The translations under genes and the position numbers were made by a program. The notes under the pieces were generated by a model. That model saw only the letters and a program-made list of their open reading frames with translations. It did not search any database and was not told the DNA's origin. Source: a bacterium (GTDB lineage Bacteria > Patescibacteriota > Minisyncoccia > UBA6257 > JAGOQP01). Taken from it: DNA of 44,627 nucleotides. The DNA is taken from positions 1 to 44,627 of the forward strand of contig JAKBUF010000004.1 of NCBI GenBank assembly GCA_021844025.1. The letters run 5' to 3'. Within the stretch, counting starts at the first letter, position 1; each line of letters begins with the position of its first letter. Shown here in pieces: positions 237-12,603 of the stretch.

Positions 237-926
237 ATGCCACGTACAAAAAAATCTGCATTCGCACTAACTTCTGCGTTTATGTTATTTACTGCTTGGG
301 CGGCCGACCTCTTCAAAGAAGTAAAAGAACTCGGAGGTAATGAACAACTGATCTATGATTTCTTTGCAAAAAAATCAAACATTAAAGAACTTGCGCAATC
401 AATCATTGGTTCGGTTGAAAAAGTTGTAAAAAAACTTTTCCCCGGTAACGAGTACTTGAAACTTATCTCGGGTGAGAAAGAAATCATTATTGATGTTTGT
501 GACGGTACCGAACTTCTTTCCGAGGCCACTGATACTTTCGTATCAATTGATCCCGATTTTAGAAATTACGATGCGAATGAAAAAGGTAATACAACCGAAG
601 CAACAAAAGTTGGGGTGTATGAGTTAATTAAAGACTCACAATTTACCGATTTCTTTAATTCTGTCGGTGTGGGTTTAGATAAATTATGCTTTACTCACCA
701 TCAGATCAAAAAGTTTGTTAATTCACACCGGAATTGGTTACGGGCTAACGGGTACGCAACGTTCTTTCTCTTTAAATCAGAAGGAAAGTTCTTCGTTTCC
801 AACGTGCACGTCAACGTTGTTGGTACGCTCAGCGTGAGCGTGTACCGACTTGAGCTCGGCCTTCTGTGGAGTGCGCAGGGCCGTCCTCGGGTGGTTATTC
901 CGCAACTGGATATTACTGCCCTTTAG
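237..926 (+). CDS. DGR target (variable) protein with N-terminal hydrophobic segment and C-terminal variable region
   Basis: 229-aa ORF with upstream AGGAGG. The C-terminal FFVSNVHVNVVGTLSVSVYRLELGLLWSAQGRPRVVIP is encoded by a near-copy of the template repeat at 1261-1374. Confidence 0.9.
   Translation: MPRTKKSAFALTSAFMLFTAWAADLFKEVKELGGNEQLIYDFFAKKSNIKELAQSIIGSVEKVVKKLFPGNEYLKLISGEKEIIIDVCDGTELLSEATDTFVSIDPDFRNYDANEKGNTTEATKVGVYELIKDSQFTDFFNSVGVGLDKLCFTHHQIKKFVNSHRNWLRANGYATFFLFKSEGKFFVSNVHVNVVGTLSVSVYRLELGLLWSAQGRPRVVIPQLDITAL
789..902 (+). repeat. DGR variable repeat (VR)
   Basis: Ungapped 114-bp alignment to 1261-1374 (offset 472). 16 mismatches, 14 at TR adenines (807, 817, 820, 832, 843, 855, 856, 859, 861, 862, 871, 879, 880, 886), plus G to T at 798 and C to T at 818. 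The 3' end TCGGGTGGTTATTCCG is invariant. Confidence 0.95.
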
Positions 927-946
927 ATCTTTTTCTCTTTTTTCTT

Positions 947-998
947 TATCCCTTTAGTCCTTTGGTACTTTGTACCTTGAGATTAAGGGGATATTTTT
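947..998 (+). terminator. Long hairpin plus T-run just after the VR/target stop
   Basis: TATCCCTTTAG...GGTACtttGTACC...ATTAAGGGGATA followed by TTTTT. Outer stem about 11 bp with G-U pairs, inner 5-bp stem. Confidence 0.55.
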
Positions 999-1090
999 AT
1001 ATGCTGTACGTGTAATTCTATATTGCCATGCGATTACGGTTGCAGGGCTAGGGTTATGAAATACTATGCTTGAGAGTTTTGTGGGATACG

Positions 1091-1110
1091 CCTGCCTGCC
1101 GGTAGGCAGG
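1091..1110. repeat. Small GC-rich intergenic palindrome CCTGCCTGCCGGTAGGCAGG
   Basis: Inverted repeat CCTGCC/GGCAGG in the otherwise noncoding TR upstream region. Confidence 0.5.
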
Positions 1111-1260
1111 TCTTACAAAAGAGTGGGTATACTATTTCAAACAAAAAATATCCAGTTAGTGCGCTGTGCTAAAGAGCTTCTATGCTCTGCATGAGATTCA
1201 ATTCCAAGATATTGTCTTATATGAATCAAGGAATGGTGGTGGGGAAGGCACGGTGTATAT

Positions 1261-1374
1261 TTCTTCGTTGCCAACGTGAACGTCAACGACGATGGTACGC
1301 TCAACGTGAGCGTGAACCGACTTGAGAACGACAATCTGTGGAATGCGCAGAACCGTCATCGGGTGGTTATTCCG
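1261..1374 (+). repeat. DGR template repeat (TR)
   Basis: Noncoding near-copy of the VR. Its reading frame is rich in AAC/AAT codons (ANVNVNDDGTLNVSVNRLENDNLWNAQNRHRVVIP), typical of DGR templates. Confidence 0.95.
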
Positions 1375-1387
1375 AAACCTGGTATTT

Positions 1388-1419
1388 CTCCCGTCAGTTT
1401 TTGGCGGGAGTTTTCTTTT
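1388..1419 (+). terminator. Rho-independent terminator immediately 3' of TR
   Basis: CTCCCGTCA GTTTT TGGCGGGAG then TTTTCTTTT: 9-bp stem (one G-U) with a T-rich tail on the + strand. Confidence 0.75.
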
Positions 1420-1738
1420 CTAGTCCTTGTTTCCATCCATATAGTATCCGTCCCATTTCAGCGAGTAATTCTGAAAGTTGGATATACTGTGTTTGAGAAA
1501 TGCATTTATTTTCCCACGCAAGTTGCAAAAAGAATTTGATTCCTTCAAGTTTAGAAACAGCAAGAATGAGTTTGGGTATTTTCTGCTCACAAGAAAGATA
1601 AAGTGAGATAAAAATTAGCTCAAGTAGATCGAGAAAATAACTTTCTATTTTTCCGCCCAAGGTATAGCGATGTGTTTTGGGAAATTGAGCATATAGAGAA
1701 AACCAAAGTGCGTACGTTATCTTTCCTTTCACAAGCAC
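1394..1738 (-). CDS. avd: Avd-like four-helix-bundle DGR accessory protein
   Basis: C-terminal part of ORF 1394..1903(-): VLVKGKITYALWFSLYAQFPKTHRYTLGGKIESYFLDLLELIFISLYLSCEQKIPKLILAVSKLEGIKFFLQLAWENKCISQTQYIQLSELLAEMGRILYGWKQ, matching the Avd / 23S IVP-like pattern. Start set at GTG 1738; the exact start is uncertain. Confidence 0.8.
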   Translation of the reverse strand: MLVKGKITYALWFSLYAQFPKTHRYTLGGKIESYFLDLLELIFISLYLSCEQKIPKLILAVSKLEGIKFFLQLAWENKCISQTQYIQLSELLAEMGRILYGWKQGLEKKTPAKN

Positions 1739-1750
1739 CGAAGGTGCTGT

Positions 1751-1760
1751 GGGGGGGGGG
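1751..1760. repeat. Homopolymer G(10) tract between divergent avd and RT starts
   Basis: Seen directly: gctgtGGGGGGGGGGtgaaac. Confidence 0.9.
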
Positions 1761-1787
1761 TGAAACGTGTTTTTGCATATTTGTTGT

Positions 1788-2762
1788 ATGTTTGAAAAAA
1801 TAATTTCTTTGGAAAATCTATATAGTGCGTGGGAAGAGTTCCTGCGTGGCAAACGAAATAAAGCAGATGTGCAGGTATTTTCTTTACGACTCTCTGATGG
1901 CATTCTCTCACTTCATAAGGATCTCGTCAATAAATCCTATACCCATGGAGGATATTCTGCCTTCAAAGTTTCCGATCCAAAACCTCGTCAAATCCACAAA
2001 GCTCCCGTACGTGATCGGCTTTTACATCATGCGATGTATAGAGTTTTATATCCCTATTTTGATACAAAGTTTATCGCAGATTCTTTTTCCTGTCGGAATG
2101 ATAAAGGGTCGCATCGTGCGTTATATCGTTTTCAGCACTATGTGCAGATAGTCAGTAAAAATAACACCAAACAGTGTTGGATATTGAAATGCGATATACG
2201 GAAGTTTTTTGCAAATATCAACCACGAGGTATTACTCGCCATACTACACAGACATATTACTGATACAAATGTCTTATGGTTGTGTGAACGAATTGTTAGA
2301 AGTTTTGAGAGTTCTTCGGGGAAAGGGTTACCATTGGGGAATCTTACCTCACAATTATTTGCAAATGTGTACCTGAATGAACTAGATCAATTTGTAAAAC
2401 ACAAATTACAAGTAAAATACTATATCAGATATGCGGATGATTTTGTGTTGTTTTCTTCTTGTAAAAATGAACTAGAGGGTTATTTGCTAAAGATGAAGAA
2501 CTTTCTAGAAGAAAACCTAAAAATGTCGCTTCATAAAGATAAAGTTTCTATACAAAGCATTGGATCGGGAGTGGACTTCCTTGGATGGGTACATTTTCCT
2601 GATCATCGGATATTGCGAAAAGCAACAAGAAAAAGAATGTTCCGACGTTTACAGATGCATCGTGCCCCAGAGACTCTAAATTCGTATAAGGGATTACTAA
2701 AACATGGGAATGCACACAAAATTAAAGAACAAATTGACTCAAACTTTTTATCAAGTTTGTAG
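1788..2762 (+). CDS. DGR-type reverse transcriptase
   Basis: Starts MFEKIISLENLYSAWEEFLRGKR. RT motifs KCDIRKFFANINH, GLPLGNLTSQLFANVYLNELD (DGR-type SQ motif), YYIRYADDFVLF and VDFLGW. Confidence 0.93.
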   Translation: MFEKIISLENLYSAWEEFLRGKRNKADVQVFSLRLSDGILSLHKDLVNKSYTHGGYSAFKVSDPKPRQIHKAPVRDRLLHHAMYRVLYPYFDTKFIADSFSCRNDKGSHRALYRFQHYVQIVSKNNTKQCWILKCDIRKFFANINHEVLLAILHRHITDTNVLWLCERIVRSFESSSGKGLPLGNLTSQLFANVYLNELDQFVKHKLQVKYYIRYADDFVLFSSCKNELEGYLLKMKNFLEENLKMSLHKDKVSIQSIGSGVDFLGWVHFPDHRILRKATRKRMFRRLQMHRAPETLNSYKGLLKHGNAHKIKEQIDSNFLSSL

Positions 2763-2765
2763 TTT

Positions 2766-5327
2766 TTATTCCCAATGTATTTGTTTTTCAAAGAGTTTTA
2801 TATAAGTAGCTAGGAGTGGGTGATCGTGCAACTGAGGATCTCTTTGCATAAGATGTTGCACTGATTCATACACATCTTTTACCATGGTTGGGTTTTGCAG
2901 TGCTTCCATTGCTAAATCAGGAAGTCCTGTTTGTTCGGTTCCCAGAAATTGCCCCGGTCCACGGAATTTTAAATCCATCTCCGCAAGCTCAAATCCATTT
3001 TTTGCAGATATAAGCGCCTTGAGTCGATCAAGAGTTATTTTTGAGTGGCTGTCGGTAAATAAAAAACAGTATGATTGATGCTGTGCCCTACCCACTCGTC
3101 CGCGGAATTGATACAACTGTGAAAGCCCAAAATGTTCAGATCCTTCAATAATCATGAGTGTGGCGTTGGGCACATCTACCCCCACTTCAATCACTGAAGT
3201 GGCAACTAGAATGTCTAGTTCATGATCTTTAAATTTTTTCATTACCGTGTTTTTTTCTATTGCCTTTAGTTGCCCATGCAACATACCAACTCGTAACTGG
3301 GGAAATACAGTTTTTGATAATTTTTTATACTCATCTTCAACATTTTTAACATCTAGTTGTGCAAGTTGCCGCGGGGTGAGTTTTTGTTCCGGATCTGCGG
3401 GTTGAATGCGTGGGCAAATTACAAATACTTGTCGTCCTTCTTTTATCTGTGAGCGCACAAATGCGTATGCGGTTGCTCGGTGTTGTGCGGGGACAATACG
3501 GGTGTCTATTTTTTTACGATTTTTAGGTAATTCGTTAATGGTGGAAAGTTCTAAATCTCCCAGTAGGGTGAGTGCGAGCGTGCGGGGAATAGGAGTGGCA
3601 CTCATGCTGAGTAAATGTGGACTGTAGTTCCGATGCGAACGATGCAAATTAGATTCGAATAACACGAACGAAGAGTTTAAAATTCGTTTTGCTTTTAGAT
3701 ATTTTTGTTGGAAATCAATAAGAAGCCCAAGCTTTAAATTTTTTGATTTTAGATACCTCATGGTTTGCGCATAATCTTCTTTCGTGAAAAATGGTTTTGC
3801 TTTAACTTCGATAAGTATTTTCCCATCTATAATAAAATCAGCAAAGTTTGATTTTCTTCCACCCACCTCTATAGCGGATTCTCTTTCATACGGAATCTTT
3901 TTTTCTTTTAGTTGTTGTTCTAATTCATCTGCATATTGACGTTCTCGTGCAAATCGCCCTAATTTATCTTGTACGTTAAAGAAAATACCCTGCAATGTAT
4001 AAGACAATTCCTTTTCTACAATTTTTTCATCATCCGTATTTTGTTCGCCAAATTCGAGTAAATTCGCATTGTTTGCATCGAATAATAAAGCTCTCTGGGC
4101 TACGCCGAATCGATGTTGTTCGTCAATAATAACCAACCCTACTTCATTAAATGAAATATTTTTTTGTATAACCGCGTGAGTTCCAATGATGATTTTTATT
4201 TTCCCCGAAGCAATGTACGCACGCAATTCTTTTTTGGTAATTTCTCGTTCCAACCCTTTTCCTAAAAACAACACGGTACGCGATGCGGTTAGTAGCCCCA
4301 CCCCACCTTCAAACTCCTCAAAAAAATTGGTGAATGTGTGATAGTGCTGTTGTGCCAAAACTTCAGTTGGGGCCATAAATACTGCTTGTTTACCGTGTGA
4401 CGCAGTTACTAATGCTGCTAGTGCTGCCACCACGGTTTTTCCTGACCCTACATCTCCTTGTAGTAATCGATGTGTGGCATGTGGTAGGGCAATATCTTGT
4501 AATATGTCTTGCAACGCGTGTTGTTGCCCCTCGGTTAGTTCAAATGGTATATAGGAAAGATATTTCGATATTTGTTTGGAGGTGTGGGGGAGTGCATATG
4601 ATACACGACGAGTAATTTCGTTTTTTTGATTTGTTTTTATAAGTTGAAGTAAAAATAAATCTTGATACATAAATCGTTTCCGTGCCTGTTGTGTTTGCAA
4701 TAATGATTCGGGTTTGTGCATTTGTACAAACGCCTCAGCAAGTATGGGGAATGTATGCTGCTGCATGATGCTCTCGGGAAGAAACTCCTTAGATGTTTTG
4801 GCAATGGGTAGTACTTTTTCCATAACAAATCGGATTCCCTTAGAGGTAATTCCTTTTGTTTCTGAATATATAGGAACTAACCTACCGGTGTGTCGAGGAA
4901 TATATGAATCTCTTGAAATAATCTCAAATTCGGGAGACTGAAATTGAGCGCGTTTACCCGTAAATGAAACCTTGCCTGCAATGTTAATTGCAAGGCCTTC
5001 TTTTAATTGATTCAGTAAAAATCGTTGATTAAACCACACCGCTTCTGCTTTCCCGCTCTCATCAACAATACGAGCGGTAATAACTAGATATTTTTTCCAT
5101 TTAGTTTTTGATACGGAGAGTTTTTCAATGGTGCCGTGTATGGTGGCAATTTCATTTGGCTGTAGTTGCGCAATTGGTTTTATAGCAGAAAAATCTTGGT
5201 ATCGAAATGGAAAATAATATAAAAGATCTTTTACGGTTTTTAGTTGTAATTTTTCAAGTTTAGCGGCAAATAGAGGTCCAATGCCTTTTATATGTGTGAG
5301 TGGAGTTGATAAAGATGCCAAGTCCAT
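2766..5327 (-). CDS. recG: ATP-dependent DNA helicase RecG with an about 150-aa in-frame insertion
   Basis: LTHIKGIGPLFAAKL, LLQGDVGSGKTVVA, DEQHRFGVAQR, SMSATPIPRTLALT, QLYQFRGRVGRAQHQSYCFLF. Confidence 0.95.
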   Translation of the reverse strand: MDLASLSTPLTHIKGIGPLFAAKLEKLQLKTVKDLLYYFPFRYQDFSAIKPIAQLQPNEIATIHGTIEKLSVSKTKWKKYLVITARIVDESGKAEAVWFNQRFLLNQLKEGLAINIAGKVSFTGKRAQFQSPEFEIISRDSYIPRHTGRLVPIYSETKGITSKGIRFVMEKVLPIAKTSKEFLPESIMQQHTFPILAEAFVQMHKPESLLQTQQARKRFMYQDLFLLQLIKTNQKNEITRRVSYALPHTSKQISKYLSYIPFELTEGQQHALQDILQDIALPHATHRLLQGDVGSGKTVVAALAALVTASHGKQAVFMAPTEVLAQQHYHTFTNFFEEFEGGVGLLTASRTVLFLGKGLEREITKKELRAYIASGKIKIIIGTHAVIQKNISFNEVGLVIIDEQHRFGVAQRALLFDANNANLLEFGEQNTDDEKIVEKELSYTLQGIFFNVQDKLGRFARERQYADELEQQLKEKKIPYERESAIEVGGRKSNFADFIIDGKILIEVKAKPFFTKEDYAQTMRYLKSKNLKLGLLIDFQQKYLKAKRILNSSFVLFESNLHRSHRNYSPHLLSMSATPIPRTLALTLLGDLELSTINELPKNRKKIDTRIVPAQHRATAYAFVRSQIKEGRQVFVICPRIQPADPEQKLTPRQLAQLDVKNVEDEYKKLSKTVFPQLRVGMLHGQLKAIEKNTVMKKFKDHELDILVATSVIEVGVDVPNATLMIIEGSEHFGLSQLYQFRGRVGRAQHQSYCFLFTDSHSKITLDRLKALISAKNGFELAEMDLKFRGPGQFLGTEQTGLPDLAMEALQNPTMVKDVYESVQHLMQRDPQLHDHPLLATYIKLFEKQIHWE
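3624..4073 (-). other. In-frame insertion inside recG encoding a GxxExxY / PD-(D/E)xK-like domain
   Basis: Residues about 419-568: LSYTLQGIFFNVQDKLGRFARERQYADELEQQLKEKKIPYERESAIEVGGRKSNFADFIIDGKILIEVKAKPFFTKEDYAQTMRYLKSKNLKLGLLIDFQQKYLKAKRIL, with D..(x9)..EVK. Confidence 0.8.
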
Positions 5328-7530: not shown

Positions 7531-8127
7531 ATGAGTATGAAAAAAATAATTTTAGGTCTCTTTATTTTTGGTGCTTTCAGTCTGGCAGGAGTCGCATCTG
7601 CGCAGGTCGGCATGATGGGCGGATATTGGCAGGGTGGAAGTCAGGCACAGCCAGTGCAGAGCGGAGAATTGAATAGCGTTTTGCAGAACATCTACTCGAG
7701 CCAAAATGTTTCAAGTCAGGCTCAAGTTGACTGCAGCAAAGTAACCGATGACCAGTTCGACAAACTCGGAGACGCCTACATGGGTGTTATGTTGCCTAAT
7801 CAACAACAGCACGAGGCAATGGACAACATGATGGGCGGCGAAGGATCGGCCAGCTTAAAACAAGCGCACATCAATATGGGGCGGTCGTATCTCGGCTGTT
7901 GGTCAAATTACAATTCCGGACCGGTTATGATGGGTGGGTACGGAATGATGAACGGGTACAACGGTGCTTATGGTAATTATTATCCAAGCGGAATGATGGG
8001 TGGGTACGGATCAGGCTGGAACATGATGGGTAATTGGGGCTTTGGCGGCTGGGTTACAACCGTTCTCATTTGGGCACTTCTTATTCTCGGCATTGTTGTG
8101 GCTGTGAAGTGGCTTCGGAAAAAATAA
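7531..8127 (+). CDS. Exported Met/Gly-rich protein with C-terminal TM, putative Cu-binding
   Basis: Signal peptide ...SLAGVASAQVGMMGGYW; many MMGGYG motifs; C-terminal TM VLIWALLILGIVVAVKWLRKK. Confidence 0.75.
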   Translation: MSMKKIILGLFIFGAFSLAGVASAQVGMMGGYWQGGSQAQPVQSGELNSVLQNIYSSQNVSSQAQVDCSKVTDDQFDKLGDAYMGVMLPNQQQHEAMDNMMGGEGSASLKQAHINMGRSYLGCWSNYNSGPVMMGGYGMMNGYNGAYGNYYPSGMMGGYGSGWNMMGNWGFGGWVTTVLIWALLILGIVVAVKWLRKK

Positions 8128-8160
8128 TGCAAAAAATTAATAATTTAATTTGATAAAAAT

Positions 8161-8421
8161 ATGGACAAACTTTCACTAAAATCATACGGCTGGAAATGTG
8201 TTCTTGGTCTTGAAGTCTTGTATGTCATCTGCCTGGGATATGGCGCTGTTCTTTCGGAAAGCGCAAAGCAATTGCACAGCGCTTTATTTGGAGTGCTGAT
8301 TCCCGGATTTAACTGGGGAATAGGAAGCATTGTTTGGGGCGCAGTCTACTTGTTCGTTCTGGCTTGGATATTTGCCTGGTACTACGTCTGGATGCATAAC
8401 TCAAGCATAATCAGAAAATAA
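8161..8421 (+). CDS. Small 2-TM membrane protein in the Cu island (DUF5676-like topology)
   Basis: MDKLSLKSYGWKCVLGLEVLYVICLGYG...FNWGIGSIVWGAVYLFVLAWIFAWYYVWM. Confidence 0.6.
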   Translation: MDKLSLKSYGWKCVLGLEVLYVICLGYGAVLSESAKQLHSALFGVLIPGFNWGIGSIVWGAVYLFVLAWIFAWYYVWMHNSSIIRK

Positions 8422-8425
8422 GAAT

Positions 8426-8602
8426 ATGACTAACATAATATTAGTAATCATCTTGCTCGGCGGTTGTTTCCTTATGCACTATTTCATGATGCGAAAAGGA
8501 GGCCACTCCGGCCGTAGCGAGTCAGATGGTGAGAACAAAAAGCCGGAAGCCGACAGCCAGAACAAGCATTCTGATCATTCCGGTCATGGTTGTTGCCACT
8601 AA
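8426..8602 (+). CDS. 58-aa single-TM microprotein with His/Cys-rich tail
   Basis: ATG at 8426: MTNIILVIILLGGCFLMHYFMMRKGGHSGRSESDGENKKPEADSQNKHSDHSGHGCCH*. Below the ORF-track cutoff. Confidence 0.75.
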   Translation: MTNIILVIILLGGCFLMHYFMMRKGGHSGRSESDGENKKPEADSQNKHSDHSGHGCCH

Positions 8603-8610
8603 ATAAATCC

Positions 8611-8796
8611 ATGTTCCAATCATTCTTCAACAAATTCAAAAAAGATCCGGCCAAGAAGCCACCTCGAGATCCAGTTTGTGGCATGCAAGCAAGCGAGGGC
8701 ATCACTTTATCCTATAAGGGACAAATGTATTCTTTTTGCTCGGATCATTGCCGAAGTGAATTTGAGAAAAATCCGGAAAGCTATATCAAGAAATAA
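8611..8796 (+). CDS. YHS-domain protein (TRASH-like metal binding)
   Basis: MFQSFFNKFKKDPAKKPPRDPVCGMQASEGITLSYKGQMYSFCSDHCRSEFEKNPESYIKK. Confidence 0.85.
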   Translation: MFQSFFNKFKKDPAKKPPRDPVCGMQASEGITLSYKGQMYSFCSDHCRSEFEKNPESYIKK

Positions 8797-8798
8797 TC

Positions 8799-9239
8799 AT
8801 GACAAACACCGCGGCAAAACCAGTTTTGTATGGGGTACTCGCAAGCGCGATTCTGCTTGGTGTGTACTTTGCGGTGCTCACGCTTGTATCCGGGTGGGGC
8901 TTTACTCTGGAGCAATTCGGCAATTATTGGTATTTCATAACAAGCTTGGCGGCGGGCTTCGGAATTCAGATTGGTTTGTATCAGTACCTCAAAGCCTTAG
9001 TTCATGGAGGCCAAGGCATGGGCAAGGTGGTTGGTGTGTCAGGAACAACTTCCACGGCTTCTATGATCTCCTGCTGTGCGCACTATCTCGTAAATCTGGT
9101 TCCCATTCTTGGGGTCACCGGGCTCGCCACGTTTGTAGCTCAATATCAGATCAAGATCTTCTGGGTCGGCCTTGCTTTTAATATTTTCGGCATTCTCTTT
9201 ATCAGCAACAAAATCACCAAATTCAAAAAACACATATGA
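8799..9239 (+). CDS. Four-TM membrane protein with SCCAH motif (putative metal-related transporter)
   Basis: TSTASMISCCAHYLVNLVPILGVTGLATFVAQYQIKIFWVGLAFNIFGILFI. Confidence 0.6.
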   Translation: MTNTAAKPVLYGVLASAILLGVYFAVLTLVSGWGFTLEQFGNYWYFITSLAAGFGIQIGLYQYLKALVHGGQGMGKVVGVSGTTSTASMISCCAHYLVNLVPILGVTGLATFVAQYQIKIFWVGLAFNIFGILFISNKITKFKKHI

Positions 9240-9694
9240 AAAAAGTAGTCATTACAATTTTATCAATAGCTGCCTTTGTTGCTGGGTTTATAATCATTTA
9301 TCAAAGCCGCCCTGCAGTGCAGACTCCGGCATCTAATGAAAGTCAGCAGTCAGGCAATTCCCAAAAATGGGAAACGAAAACCGATGATCAAGCAAGCGTC
9401 AATGTAGTGATCACCCCGCTTGATCTGTCAGAGCAGTCTTCGGAATGGAAATTTGATGTCGGCATGAACACACATTCAGTCGAGTTGGATCAAGATATGA
9501 CGAAGTCTACCGTACTTATCGATGACCAAGGCAAAGAGTACACGCCGACAAAATGGGACGGACCTGTCGGTGGCCATCACAGAGAAGGCACACTGAGTTT
9601 TGCGCCCATCACACCCTATCCGCAGCATTTGACCATGAAAATAAAAGGTATAGGCGGAGTAGATCGATCGTTTTCGTGGACGCTAAACGAATAA
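9236..9694 (+). CDS. Exported hypothetical protein in the Cu island
   Basis: N-terminal TM/signal MKKVVITILSIAAFVAGFIIIY; overlaps the upstream stop (coupled). Confidence 0.6.
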   Translation: MKKVVITILSIAAFVAGFIIIYQSRPAVQTPASNESQQSGNSQKWETKTDDQASVNVVITPLDLSEQSSEWKFDVGMNTHSVELDQDMTKSTVLIDDQGKEYTPTKWDGPVGGHHREGTLSFAPITPYPQHLTMKIKGIGGVDRSFSWTLNE

Positions 9695-9695
9695 T

Positions 9696-10403
9696 ATGCA
9701 ATACATTTGGCTAATTTGGAGCTTAATATTGATTGTAATCTGGCTGGTCATTTACTGGTCTCTTAGTTCGAATAAGGAGAAAAAAGAGATGCTCGTGGTA
9801 AGTTTGTGGACGTCACTTCTAGGATTGACTGAACCCTTGTTCGTACCGGTATATTGGTCGCCGCCGTCATTATTTAATTTGGCTTTGCGGACCGGTTTTG
9901 ATATTGAAAGTTTAATATTTTCTTTTGGCATAGGTGGCATTGCTATTATTTTGTATCAGAGAATTTTTCGAGGCCATGAAACGAGAATGACTGCCAGAGA
10001 ACATAACTCATCCCGGCATAAATTTCATACATGGGCGCTTCTATCCGCACCCGCAATTCTCATCATTCTCTTGACTGTTACCAATCTGAATCCTCTACAC
10101 TCTTCGATCATTGCCATGATTATAGGAGGATTGACCACTTGGTATTGTCGGCCGGATTTAAAGAAAAAAATGATCACGAGTGCTTTTCTTTTTCTAGCCC
10201 TTTATTTTGTGTACTTCTTGACCCTTATCGCCATATCGCCGGGCTATGTCGAGAAGGTTTGGAATCTTAAGGCAATCTCAGGAATTCTGATTATAGGAAT
10301 ACCGCTTGAAGAACTGCTATTTGCCTTAAGCTTCGGATTCATCTGGTCAAGTATCTACGAACATCTTACTTGGAATAAATTAAAATTAATGAAACAAGAA
10401 TAA
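9696..10403 (+). CDS. Lycopene-cyclase-domain-like membrane protein
   Basis: Polytopic; C-terminal WNLKAISGILIIGIPLEELLFALSFGFIWSSIYE resembles the lycopene cyclase CrtYc/d signature (IPLEEL). Confidence 0.6.
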   Translation: MQYIWLIWSLILIVIWLVIYWSLSSNKEKKEMLVVSLWTSLLGLTEPLFVPVYWSPPSLFNLALRTGFDIESLIFSFGIGGIAIILYQRIFRGHETRMTAREHNSSRHKFHTWALLSAPAILIILLTVTNLNPLHSSIIAMIIGGLTTWYCRPDLKKKMITSAFLFLALYFVYFLTLIAISPGYVEKVWNLKAISGILIIGIPLEELLFALSFGFIWSSIYEHLTWNKLKLMKQE

Positions 10404-10407
10404 ATTT

Positions 10408-12603
10408 ATGGATCACGAAAATCACAATCACAATCACGATTCGATGCAGGAAAAAATAATCTATACCTGCCCTATGCATCCGGAAGTTCGGAAAACCGAA
10501 CCGGGCAAATGTCCGGGCTGTGGCATGGATTTGATTCCGGAGAAGAAATCAGCCATCCGTGATGAACGCGATATGCAAAAAATGAGCCATATGGATCATG
10601 AGGTAGCAATGACAAGTCCGCAGATGGCAAAGAAGATGGAAAGAGACATGCGTCGCAGATTTTTTGTGTCATTTATTCTTTCAATCCCAATATTTTTGCT
10701 TTCGCCGGTTGGAGCAAACTTTTTAGGCATTAATCTTACAAGTCCGGAAATAACAAACTGGCTACTTCTTGTGCTAACCACTCCAATTGTATTCTGGACG
10801 GGTTCTATTTTTATTACGGGCACATACTATTCGCTCAAGGCTAAGAAGCTCAATATGGCCGTGCTTATCGCCACTGGCGTATTGGCAGCCTATCTTTTTA
10901 GTGTACTGCTTACAGTTGTTCGTCCTGGATCGGAAACTTTTTACGAAGCAGCGGCGCTCCTCGTGACGTTTGTTTTGTTTGGCCATTGGATGGAGATGCG
11001 ATCTCGCCGGGGCACATCAGATGCGCTTCGGGCATTATTTGATCTTGTCCCGCCTCAGGCAAGAGTGATTCGAGACGGCAAAGAAATAACTATCCCCAGT
11101 GCTGAAATTATTCACGACGACATCGTTGTTCTCCGGCCGGGTGATAAGGTGCCAGTCGATGGAGAAATTATCGAGGGCGAAACTTCTATAGATGAATCGT
11201 TGGTAACTGGGGAATCAATGCCGGTGACTAAAACTGTTGGCGGAAAAGTTGTTGGCGGCTCAGTGAATCAGACAGGAATAGTAAAATTCAAGGCTACGCA
11301 GGTTGGATCGGAAACAGTGCTTGCGCAGATCATCAAGATGGTTGAGACAGCACAAAATTCTAAGGCTCCTGGGCAGCGCCTTGCTGATAGAGCTGCTGGG
11401 TGGCTTGTTGTCGTCGCCATCGGATCTGGACTCGCGGCATTTCTCGGCTGGTATTTTGGAGCCGGAGTAGGACTTTTAACCGCACTCACGTTTGCGGTTT
11501 CAACCGTCGTGATTGCCTGTCCGGATGCTCTGGGATTGGCCACGCCGGCGGCTGTAGCTGTAGGGACTGGTATTGGCGCAAAGCACGGCATTCTTATAAA
11601 AGATGCCGCAACGCTTGAAAATACCTCGCGATTAAATGCTATTGTACTCGATAAAACTGGGACGCTTACCGAGGGAAAACCGAAGGTTACTGATGTGGTT
11701 ACTTTCAACGGCTTCAGCGAACAGGAGGTTCTGCTTTATGAAGCCAGTGTTGAATCTGGTTCTAATCACCCCCTCGCAAAGGCAATTATGGAAGAAGCGG
11801 AGAAACGTAGAGCTACGCCGCTTGAATCAATCGAAAAATTTGAATCCATCGCCGGTCATGGACTCAAAGCGATAATCAGAGGAAAAGAGGTGTTTACCGG
11901 TAAAGAGAAACTTCTTACTGATAAAGGAATCTCTGTCAGTGTGGGACGATCTATTCTCGACCAATTGGCAGCCGAAGGAAAAACTCTGAGTTTGCTTGCT
12001 GTGGACGGAAAACTTGCAGGTGTTATTGCGGCTGCCGATATGATCAAACCAAGTGCCAAAAAAGCAATATCCGCGCTTCAGGGACTCGGCTTAGAAGTCG
12101 CCATGATAACCGGCGATAATAAGAAAGTAGCAGAAGCTGTCGGGAATGAGCTTGGTATTGATAGAGTTTTCGCTGAGGTGCTTCCGGAAGATAAAGCCAA
12201 GTATGTAAGAAAACTTCAAGACGAAAAGAAATTTGTCGCTATGGTTGGTGACGGTATAAACGATGCACCAGCACTAGCACAGTCAGATATTGGTATCGCT
12301 ATTGGTGCCGGTACGGACGTCGCTATTGAGACTGGAAACATTGTCCTTATGAAATCCGATCCGTACGACATTGTGTCCGCGATTCGCTTGAGCAAGGCAA
12401 CTGTCGTAAAGATGAAACAAAATCTTTTCTGGGCTGCTATTTACAACCTGCTCTCTATTCCAGTGGCAGCCGGTGTATTTTACACAAGTTTTGGCTGGTC
12501 GCTTCGTCCAGAAATTGCAGCGCTCCTGATGTCCGCCTCATCAATCATTGTTGCAACAAACGCCGTCCTCCTTAAAAGAATCGAATCAAAATTAGCCGCT
12601 TAA
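10408..12603 (+). CDS. copA/copB-like: Heavy-metal (Cu-type) P1B-type ATPase with N-terminal YTCPMHPEV metal-binding domain and CPD motif
   Basis: YTCPMHPEVRKTEPGKCPGCGMDLIP, VIACPDALGLATPAA, DKTGTLTEG, MVGDGINDAPALAQSDIG, YNLLSIPVAAG, MSASSIIVATNA. Confidence 0.93.
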   Translation: MDHENHNHNHDSMQEKIIYTCPMHPEVRKTEPGKCPGCGMDLIPEKKSAIRDERDMQKMSHMDHEVAMTSPQMAKKMERDMRRRFFVSFILSIPIFLLSPVGANFLGINLTSPEITNWLLLVLTTPIVFWTGSIFITGTYYSLKAKKLNMAVLIATGVLAAYLFSVLLTVVRPGSETFYEAAALLVTFVLFGHWMEMRSRRGTSDALRALFDLVPPQARVIRDGKEITIPSAEIIHDDIVVLRPGDKVPVDGEIIEGETSIDESLVTGESMPVTKTVGGKVVGGSVNQTGIVKFKATQVGSETVLAQIIKMVETAQNSKAPGQRLADRAAGWLVVVAIGSGLAAFLGWYFGAGVGLLTALTFAVSTVVIACPDALGLATPAAVAVGTGIGAKHGILIKDAATLENTSRLNAIVLDKTGTLTEGKPKVTDVVTFNGFSEQEVLLYEASVESGSNHPLAKAIMEEAEKRRATPLESIEKFESIAGHGLKAIIRGKEVFTGKEKLLTDKGISVSVGRSILDQLAAEGKTLSLLAVDGKLAGVIAAADMIKPSAKKAISALQGLGLEVAMITGDNKKVAEAVGNELGIDRVFAEVLPEDKAKYVRKLQDEKKFVAMVGDGINDAPALAQSDIGIAIGAGTDVAIETGNIVLMKSDPYDIVSAIRLSKATVVKMKQNLFWAAIYNLLSIPVAAGVFYTSFGWSLRPEIAALLMSASSIIVATNAVLLKRIESKLAA

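What the first reader, a model, noticed from the sequence alone, without database searches (positions are those of the whole stretch)
237..2762. Complete diversity-generating retroelement with adenine-directed hypermutation visible in the sequence
The 3' end of the 237-926 gene (789-902) aligns without gaps to noncoding 1261-1374. 14 of 16 differences fall on adenines of the noncoding copy: 14 of 28 TR adenines are changed against 2 of 86 other bases. No VR adenine replaces a TR non-adenine. Nearly all hits lie in AAY/GAY/CAT codons at first or second positions (N to H/S/Y/L/G, D to V/G, H to P). The 3' 16 bp (TCGGGTGGTTATTCCG) are invariant, as expected for an IMH-like segment. A reverse transcriptase with the DGR-type LPLGNLTSQ motif and YADD lies downstream. 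DGRs are an established system common in CPR genomes; this copy and its target appear intact and recently active.
Basis: partly seen in the sequence, partly recalled or inferred. Interest (0 to 1): 0.95.

Follow-up and report, generated by a model that had tools for sequence, protein, structure and literature searches.

The report
Hypermutator with retron-like template RNA
This bacterial element deliberately scrambles one of its own genes; it belongs to a lineage in which the RNA used as the mutation template appears to be built back-to-front compared with the textbook system, and in which a slippery run of G's may switch the mutator on and off.

Summary
It is a diversity-generating retroelement (DGR). 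It is not the textbook layout. An avd gene lies antisense between TR and RT. In 75/75 related Patescibacteria loci with avd in view it is inverted, against 0/65 in viral DGRs, and the RT tree separates the two arrangements with support 100. About 10 nt after TR is a terminator-like hairpin, so there is no BPP-1-type 3' spacer. A covarying structured RNA lies upstream of TR instead. P2 (12 bp, closing at TR's 5' edge; z=20.9) and P1 (upstream strand pairing with TR's 3' edge; z=16.3) frame the template exactly. This is retron topology. RNA alone found 29 further loci; 27 carry a TR next to it. About 19% of sampled Patescibacteria genomes have it. Second, a C7-12 tract sits at avd's 5' end in 70/104 loci (0/55 canonical). 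In this genome G>=9 occurs only at its three DGRs, consistent with phase-variable control. Priming site, cDNA and switching are inferred, not shown. Two key surveys (Paul 2017, Wu 2018) could not be read, so the novelty claim is provisional.

The parts
237..926 (+). DGR target gene (229 aa, N-terminal region of unknown family, variable C-terminus)
   Evidence: ORF; homologues L011, L012, L032 at 29-42%; no family hit
789..902 (+). variable repeat VR (homology to ~906)
977..1005 (+). candidate sigma-70 promoter of the DGR RNA (TTGAGA-17-TATGCT)
   Evidence: single-locus scan not above chance; -10-like hexamers show a local peak 220-260 nt before TR in relatives, but a second peak lies 40-100 nt before TR
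1011..1421 (+). predicted stand-alone DGR RNA: 5' hairpins, P1, P2 domain, TR, tail, terminator
   Evidence: unconstrained MFE fold contains P1, P2, P3 and terminator, -141.7 kcal/mol; CM R1 81.5 bits at 1138-1263
1146..1155 (+). P1 5' strand (proposed primer strand), AAAUAUCCAG
   Evidence: pairs with 1379-1387; cognate-vs-permuted z=16.3 over 56 loci, z=6.9 out of sample, confined to this place
1154..1161 (+). conserved A[C/G]UUGGUG motif between P1 and P2 (AGUUAGUG here); proposed priming junction
1159..1170 (+). P2 5' strand, GUGCGCUGUGCU
   Evidence: 12-bp helix, 11 of 12 pairs with compensatory changes, z=20.9
1247..1258 (+). P2 3' strand, GGCACGGUGUAU, ending 2 nt before TR
1261..1374 (+). 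template repeat TR (homology to ~1378)
1379..1387 (+). P1 3' strand at the TR 3' edge, CUGGUAUUU
1388..1420 (+). intrinsic-terminator-like hairpin plus T-run ending the TR RNA
   Evidence: hairpin within 60 nt of TR with z>2 in 53/67 loci
1394..1730 (-). avd (bAvd), antisense to TR RNA and RT
   Evidence: PF22296 8e-14, NCBIfam DivGenRetAVD 1e-13, below that model's cut-off, PHROG Avd 1e-14; inverted in all related loci with avd in view
1751..1760 (.). G10/C10 tract at the 5' end of avd, candidate phase-variation tract
   Evidence: one of only three G>=9 tracts in the genome
1776..1778 (-). candidate upstream avd start ATG, out of frame with the Avd core at C10, in frame at C9
1788..2762 (+). 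DGR reverse transcriptase

Best explanation
This is a DGR of a Patescibacteria-centred lineage with a re-wired template RNA. SHOWN by sequence: adenine-specific TR-to-VR divergence; avd on the opposite strand between TR and RT; a terminator-like hairpin right after TR; a conserved structured RNA upstream of TR with two covarying long-range helices, P2 ending at the TR 5' edge and P1 joining the upstream strand to the TR 3' edge. INFERRED: the RNA is transcribed from its own promoter and ends at the hairpin. P1 puts the upstream strand, in primer polarity, against the 3' end of TR. RT-Avd binds the P2 domain and starts cDNA at the P1/P2 junction, probably from a 2'-OH as in BPP-1 and retrons. 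It copies TR with errors at A, stops at P2, and the cDNA replaces VR. The topology is that of a retron ncRNA (complement - structured domain - template - complement), whereas BPP-1 carries structure and primer 3' of TR. A poly-C tract in avd's 5' end probably makes Avd, and in subgroup B also the RT, switch on and off by slippage.
For: DGR identity. Inverted avd: 75/75 related loci with avd in view, plus 26/26 RNA-found loci that have avd; viral DGRs 65 same-strand, 0 opposite; RT tree separates 78 inverted from 57 same-strand rows by one branch, SH-aLRT 100. Terminator. P2: 11 of 12 pairs with two-sided changes; covariation for the whole structure 0.831 against 0.319 shuffled and at most 0.216 slid; independent in subgroup B, 10/12. 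P1: z=16.3, controls 0.1-0.9, confined to the TR 3' junction, out of sample z=6.9. RNA model finds 54/287 genomes, 0 hits in 78 viral DGR loci, none in the canonical DGRs L007/L008 of the same genus. RNA-only hits: 27/29 directly followed by TR. RT-less RNA+TR+VR cassettes with changed VRs. Retron topology: PMC6868368; BPP-1 topology: PMC12875486.
Against: No RNA-seq, cDNA or branch point; the priming nucleotide is not fixed by conservation. The window's own terminator and promoter are not above chance taken alone. P1 in the window is 9 bp with a bulge. P1a also matches the VR 3' junction (z=10.7), not analysed further, so part of the P1 signal could serve target pairing. Some loci (L043, L045, L061, L062, L067, L078, L089) show no hairpin above shuffles after TR. 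Avd of the window is out of frame from its upstream ATG at C10, though in-frame GTGs follow the tract.
Confidence: 0.82

Rival explanations
1. An ordinary BPP-1-type DGR: priming from RNA 3' of TR, with avd flipped by chance and no mechanistic change.
For: RT and Avd are clear homologues of canonical ones; TR/VR bias is standard.
Against: Terminator-like hairpin right after TR; downstream sequence is antisense avd; P1 and P2 place the pairing partner upstream; flipped avd is universal in the lineage.
Confidence: 0.07
2. The upstream RNA binds or protects the transcript and P1/P2 hold its ends together, but cDNA is primed from the free 3'-OH of the terminated RNA or from a nick in VR DNA.
For: The RNA 3' end lies next to P1b; the closing helices would stabilise any short RNA; P1a also matches VR.
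Against: P1 has exactly the polarity and register of a primer duplex; the closest systems (BPP-1, retrons) prime from an internal nucleotide.
Confidence: 0.15
3. The poly-C/poly-G tract is not a switch but a transcriptional-slippage or ribosome-binding feature, with avd starting downstream of it.
For: In-frame GTG/TTG exist after the tract in many loci; the window copy has GTG codons and C6 has an ATG behind a purine-rich AAAGGA; related loci L004/L005 keep one tract length.
Against: Only 7/70 have an in-frame ATG after the tract and 10 have no start at all in the assembled frame; in subgroup B both ATGs lie across the tract, embedded as antisense of in-frame His codons, with matching frame offsets.
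Confidence: 0.3

Closest known systems
Bordetella phage BPP-1 DGR (mtd/avd/TR/brt)
   Same: TR/VR adenine mutagenesis, homologous RT and Avd, target gene upstream
   Different: BPP-1: avd same strand and 5' of TR, structured spacer 3' of TR with the priming adenine, stem-loop just after VR (PMC12875486, PMC3240598). Here: avd antisense, terminator-like hairpin after TR, structured RNA 5' of TR, no hairpin enrichment within 45 nt after VR.
Patescibacteria/CPR-restricted DGR clade 2 (Roux et al. 2021, PMC8144416)
   Same: Patescibacterial, cell-encoded, target without recognisable domains; very likely the same lineage
   Different: That paper's main text contains no mention of Avd, accessory gene, strand or orientation; membership in clade 2 was not tested here against its reference RTs.
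Retron msr-msd ncRNA
   Same: 5' complement, conserved priming junction, structured domain, template, 3' complement in that order (PMC6868368)
   Different: RT is of the DGR type, template is mutated at A and homes to a gene; no evidence of msDNA; works like, is not a member.
Simple-sequence contingency loci (poly-C/G phase variation, e.g. Neisseria, Campylobacter)
   Same: C/G tract of 8-12 close behind a start codon, frames spread over all three values
   Different: Here it sits in a mutator's accessory gene and, in subgroup B, in two overlapping divergent genes; length variation within a population not yet seen.

Membership tests
Diversity-generating retroelement | TR/VR pair differing mainly at TR adenines | tested here: met
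   p=1e-8; pooled 1217/2198 vs 55/5969
Diversity-generating retroelement | DGR-type reverse transcriptase | tested here: met
   PHROG RT 3e-110, PDB 8ub7 1e-41 (identification of that entry as the BPP-1 RT is own knowledge), forms one tree with viral DGR RTs
Diversity-generating retroelement | Avd-type accessory protein | tested here: met
   PF22296 8e-14 above cut-off; NCBIfam hit below its cut-off
Diversity-generating retroelement | mutagenic retrohoming observed | not testable with these tools
   needs reads or an assay
BPP-1-type DGR architecture | avd on the RT strand upstream of TR | tested here: not met
BPP-1-type DGR architecture | structured spacer between TR and RT that primes cDNA | tested here: not met
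   terminator-like hairpin then antisense avd; P1 partner is upstream
BPP-1-type DGR architecture | inverted repeat within ~35 nt after VR | tested here: not met
   9/67 loci vs 7/67 control in the first 45 nt after VR
Retron | 5'/3' complementary ends flanking msr-msd with structured RNA 5' of the template | tested here: met
   P1 and P2; same topology only
Retron | retron-type RT | tested here: not met
   retron St85 RT NCBIfam model 55.9 bits against a 235-bit cut-off; RT is nearest to 8ub7
Retron | conserved priming guanosine and 2'-5' branched msDNA | not testable with these tools
   needs biochemistry
Phase-variable contingency locus | homopolymer tract inside the 5' coding region | tested here: inconclusive
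   tract conserved at that place, start codon not proven
Phase-variable contingency locus | tract length varies within a population | not tested
   no reads available; the related pair L004/L005 kept one length

The most novel reading that the evidence does not exclude
A DGR lineage in which the template RNA was topologically permuted into retron form (primer and RT-binding domain 5' of the template, P2 as the stop), and in which one slippery homopolymer between head-to-head avd and RT genes switches the hypermutator on and off, the RNA cassette also being served in trans by RTs elsewhere in the genome.
Probability: 0.5. Interest if true: 0.92.

Novelty: new variant of a known kind. Interest (0 to 1): 0.82.

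Why it matters
If right, the way a DGR starts and stops cDNA synthesis is not fixed: one lineage uses a BPP-1-like 3' spacer, another a retron-like 5' domain, which links two RT systems thought to be distinct and offers a compact, self-contained (~400 nt) mutagenesis template that may work in trans. A homopolymer switch on Avd/RT would mean hypermutation itself is under reversible, heritable on/off control. Patescibacteria are rich in DGRs of unknown purpose, and the covariance model makes their RNA findable without the RT.

Tried and rejected
Whole-leader duplex energies between leader and tail gave only a weak signal (z=-2.7) because the terminator and G/C-rich stems dominate; restricting to the junction resolved it. 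A P1-like test up- and downstream of TR in 49 distinct viral DGRs gave nothing (|z|<=1.0), so it does not by itself locate the BPP-1 primer. Rfam: no family at gathering threshold; a sub-threshold anti-hemB match over the terminator (21.7 of 49.5 bits) was set aside. Target fold: AlphaFold2 on 4 sequences gave pLDDT 39, unusable, so no fold search was made and a C-type lectin fold is not claimed. L093/L127 first looked RT-less, but that stretch is masked (N). The C6 avd first looked in frame from its upstream ATG; counting showed it is not at C10. I considered that P1 might be an antiterminator and rejected it: P1b and the terminator stem do not overlap. Paul 2017 and Wu 2018 were not held.

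Full report
OBSERVATION. The repeat pair is real and as described: VR 789-902 against TR 1261-1374, no gaps, 14 of 16 differences at TR adenines, 14/28 A against 2/86 other bases (Fisher p=1.2e-8). There is no third copy in the 528-kb genome. The RT 1788-2762 is a DGR-type enzyme: PF00078 6e-25, PHROG RT 3e-110, best solved relative 8ub7 at 1e-41 (that this is the BPP-1 DGR RT series is own knowledge). The genome holds three DGR RTs: the window, contig C6 (72% identical) and contig C1 (51%); each has its own TR/VR.

An avd gene is encoded on the minus strand, 1394 to about 1730, between TR and RT (PF22296 8e-14; NCBIfam DivGenRetAVD 1e-13, below that model's cut-off; PHROG Avd 1e-14). In the canonical BPP-1 element avd is on the RT strand 5' of TR, and a structured spacer 3' of TR recruits RT-Avd and supplies the priming adenine (PMC12875486). 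I fetched 80 related loci, almost all Patescibacteria. In 75 of them avd is in view and it is inverted every time; in the other five the contig begins near the RT. Two other genomes of the same genus carry, beside an inverted copy, a canonical DGR (L007, L008). In 78 viral and phage DGR loci avd is same-strand 65 times, never opposite. A 150-row RT tree separates 78 inverted from 57 same-strand rows by a single branch, SH-aLRT 100.

THE RNA. In the inverted lineage the order is target-VR, mostly 240-430 nt of non-coding DNA, TR, a few nt, hairpin plus T-run, antisense avd, RT. The post-TR hairpin exceeds shuffles (z>2) in 53 of 67 loci, although its sequence changes freely; in the window it is CTCCCGTCAGTTTTTGGCGGGAG-TTTTCTTTTC at 1388-1420 (on its own the scan is at chance level). 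So a BPP-1-like spacer transcript is unlikely. The leader upstream of TR is conserved instead: two 5' hairpins, an A-rich strand, the motif A[C/G]UUGGUG (subgroup A) or ACUxCUUG (subgroup B), then a domain closed by a 12-bp helix P2 that ends at the TR 5' edge. In subgroup A (33 loci) 20 of 21 predicted pairs, 11 of 12 in P2, show two-sided changes; the covariation score of the structure is 0.831 against 0.319 in shuffles and at most 0.216 for slid partners. Subgroup B shows P2 independently, 10/12 pairs.

P1. The strand just 5' of the motif is complementary to the sequence at the TR 3' edge. Cognate pairs beat permuted pairs (56 loci, z=16.3; P2 z=20.9; crossed controls z 0.1-0.9). Sliding windows show that the complementarity exists only between anchor -10..0 and the TR 3' junction (z 13-14; elsewhere at most 2.2). 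The unconstrained minimum-energy fold of window 1011-1421 already contains P1 (1146-1155/1379-1387), P2 (1159-1170/1247-1258), P3 and the terminator, with the same energy as when they are imposed. P1a also resembles the VR junction complement (z=10.7), in part expected because VR shares the TR 3' end; I did not take this further.

INDEPENDENT CHECK. A covariance model (R1) built from subgroup A finds subgroup B loci not used to build it, and loci where no TR had been detected; it does not find the canonical L007/L008 and has no hit in 78 viral DGR loci. In 287 Patescibacteria genomes it hits 54. Of 29 best hits, fetched by RNA alone, 27 are followed directly by a TR with adenine changes and 26 have avd, always antisense; P1 holds out of sample (27 loci, z=6.9). 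Two (L113/L122 in G076, L120/L123 in G185) carry RNA, TR and a heavily changed VR (26/37 and 21/31 adenines) with no RT or avd within the 12 kb fetched, while an RT lies elsewhere in the genome: the RNA cassette seems to work in trans.

MECHANISM (inferred). The RNA order complement - junction motif - structured domain - template - complement is the order of a retron ncRNA, in which the 5' complement ends at the priming guanosine and the 3' complement follows the template (PMC6868368). By analogy RT-Avd would prime at the P1/P2 junction, copy TR with errors at A and stop at P2. The priming nucleotide is unknown, no branch has been seen, and the free RNA 3' end or VR DNA remain possible primers. 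It works like a retron RNA; it is not a retron, since its RT is of the DGR type.

THE TRACT. A run of 7-12 C on the avd strand sits at avd's 5' end in 70 of 104 inverted loci, against 0 of 55 canonical ones (longest C5) and about 1.4% of background windows. In this genome G>=9 occurs only three times, at the three DGRs. In 11 other genomes 17 of 37 distinct G>=9 sites, by my count from the lists for the remaining RTs and RNAs, are DGR avd/RT junctions. The conserved Avd N-terminus begins right after the tract; only 7 of 70 have an in-frame ATG after it, and an ATG before it is in frame in 21 of 70, about what free slippage would give. In subgroup B the RT start also lies across the tract, as the antisense of an Avd His codon exactly six codons before the core (17/19), and the Avd start is the antisense of an in-frame RT His codon (20/22 CAT triplets; subgroup A 9/50 for the Avd His); their frame offsets match, so one slip would switch both genes. 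Within-population length variation was not tested, and the related pair L004/L005 kept its length, so phase variation is a hypothesis (about 0.65). The window avd is out of frame from its upstream ATG at C10 and would be in frame at C9; GTG codons after the tract could also start it.

RELATION TO KNOWN WORK. Roux 2021 (PMC8144416) describes a Patescibacteria-restricted DGR clade 2 with unrecognisable targets, very probably this lineage; its main text has no mention of Avd or orientation. Yan 2019 (PMC6642488) classifies cassettes by TR, VR and RT only. Searches for inverted or antisense avd and for phase-variable DGRs found nothing relevant. Paul 2017 and Wu 2018 could not be read, so the novelty claim is provisional.

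VERDICT. DGR membership is firm. The layout and RNA topology are a well-supported new variant; the priming route and the switch are testable inferences.

Noticed in passing
L113/L122 (G076:C4 ~129 kb), L120/L123 (G185:C22 ~4.3 kb): RNA+TR+VR cassettes without RT or avd in the 12 kb fetched, with heavily changed VRs; an RT lies elsewhere in the same genome, suggesting the template RNA works in trans.
   Followed up: partly
window 1091-1110 +: A 20-nt palindrome CCTGCCTGCCGGTAGGCAGG is inserted in the second 5' hairpin of the DGR RNA, absent from the C6 copy; it occurs nowhere else in this genome.
   Followed up: partly
window 2766-5327 -: RecG helicase carries an in-frame PDDEXK_3 domain (residues 440-545, PF13366 3e-18) between its DEAD and Helicase_C domains, an unusual insertion.
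   Followed up: no
L125 5465-5869 and window 1394-1750 -: The avd N-terminal two thirds are nearly identical between the C7 and C6 DGRs while the 3' third and the RTs (72%) have diverged, suggesting gene conversion or strong constraint.
   Followed up: partly
G259:C10:76364-76475: Second copy of the DGR RNA in a genome with one RT match (C10:71103); not examined for TR/VR.
   Followed up: no
L100/L124 (G286:C7 ~106 kb): A strong RNA-model hit (102 bits) followed by coding sequence, no TR/VR found and no RT match in that genome: a possibly co-opted or relic RNA.
   Followed up: partly
window 7531-12603 +: Cluster that looks like heavy-metal (copper) handling, including a P-type ATPase-like ORF at 10408-12603 (judged from ORF sequences only).
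   Followed up: no
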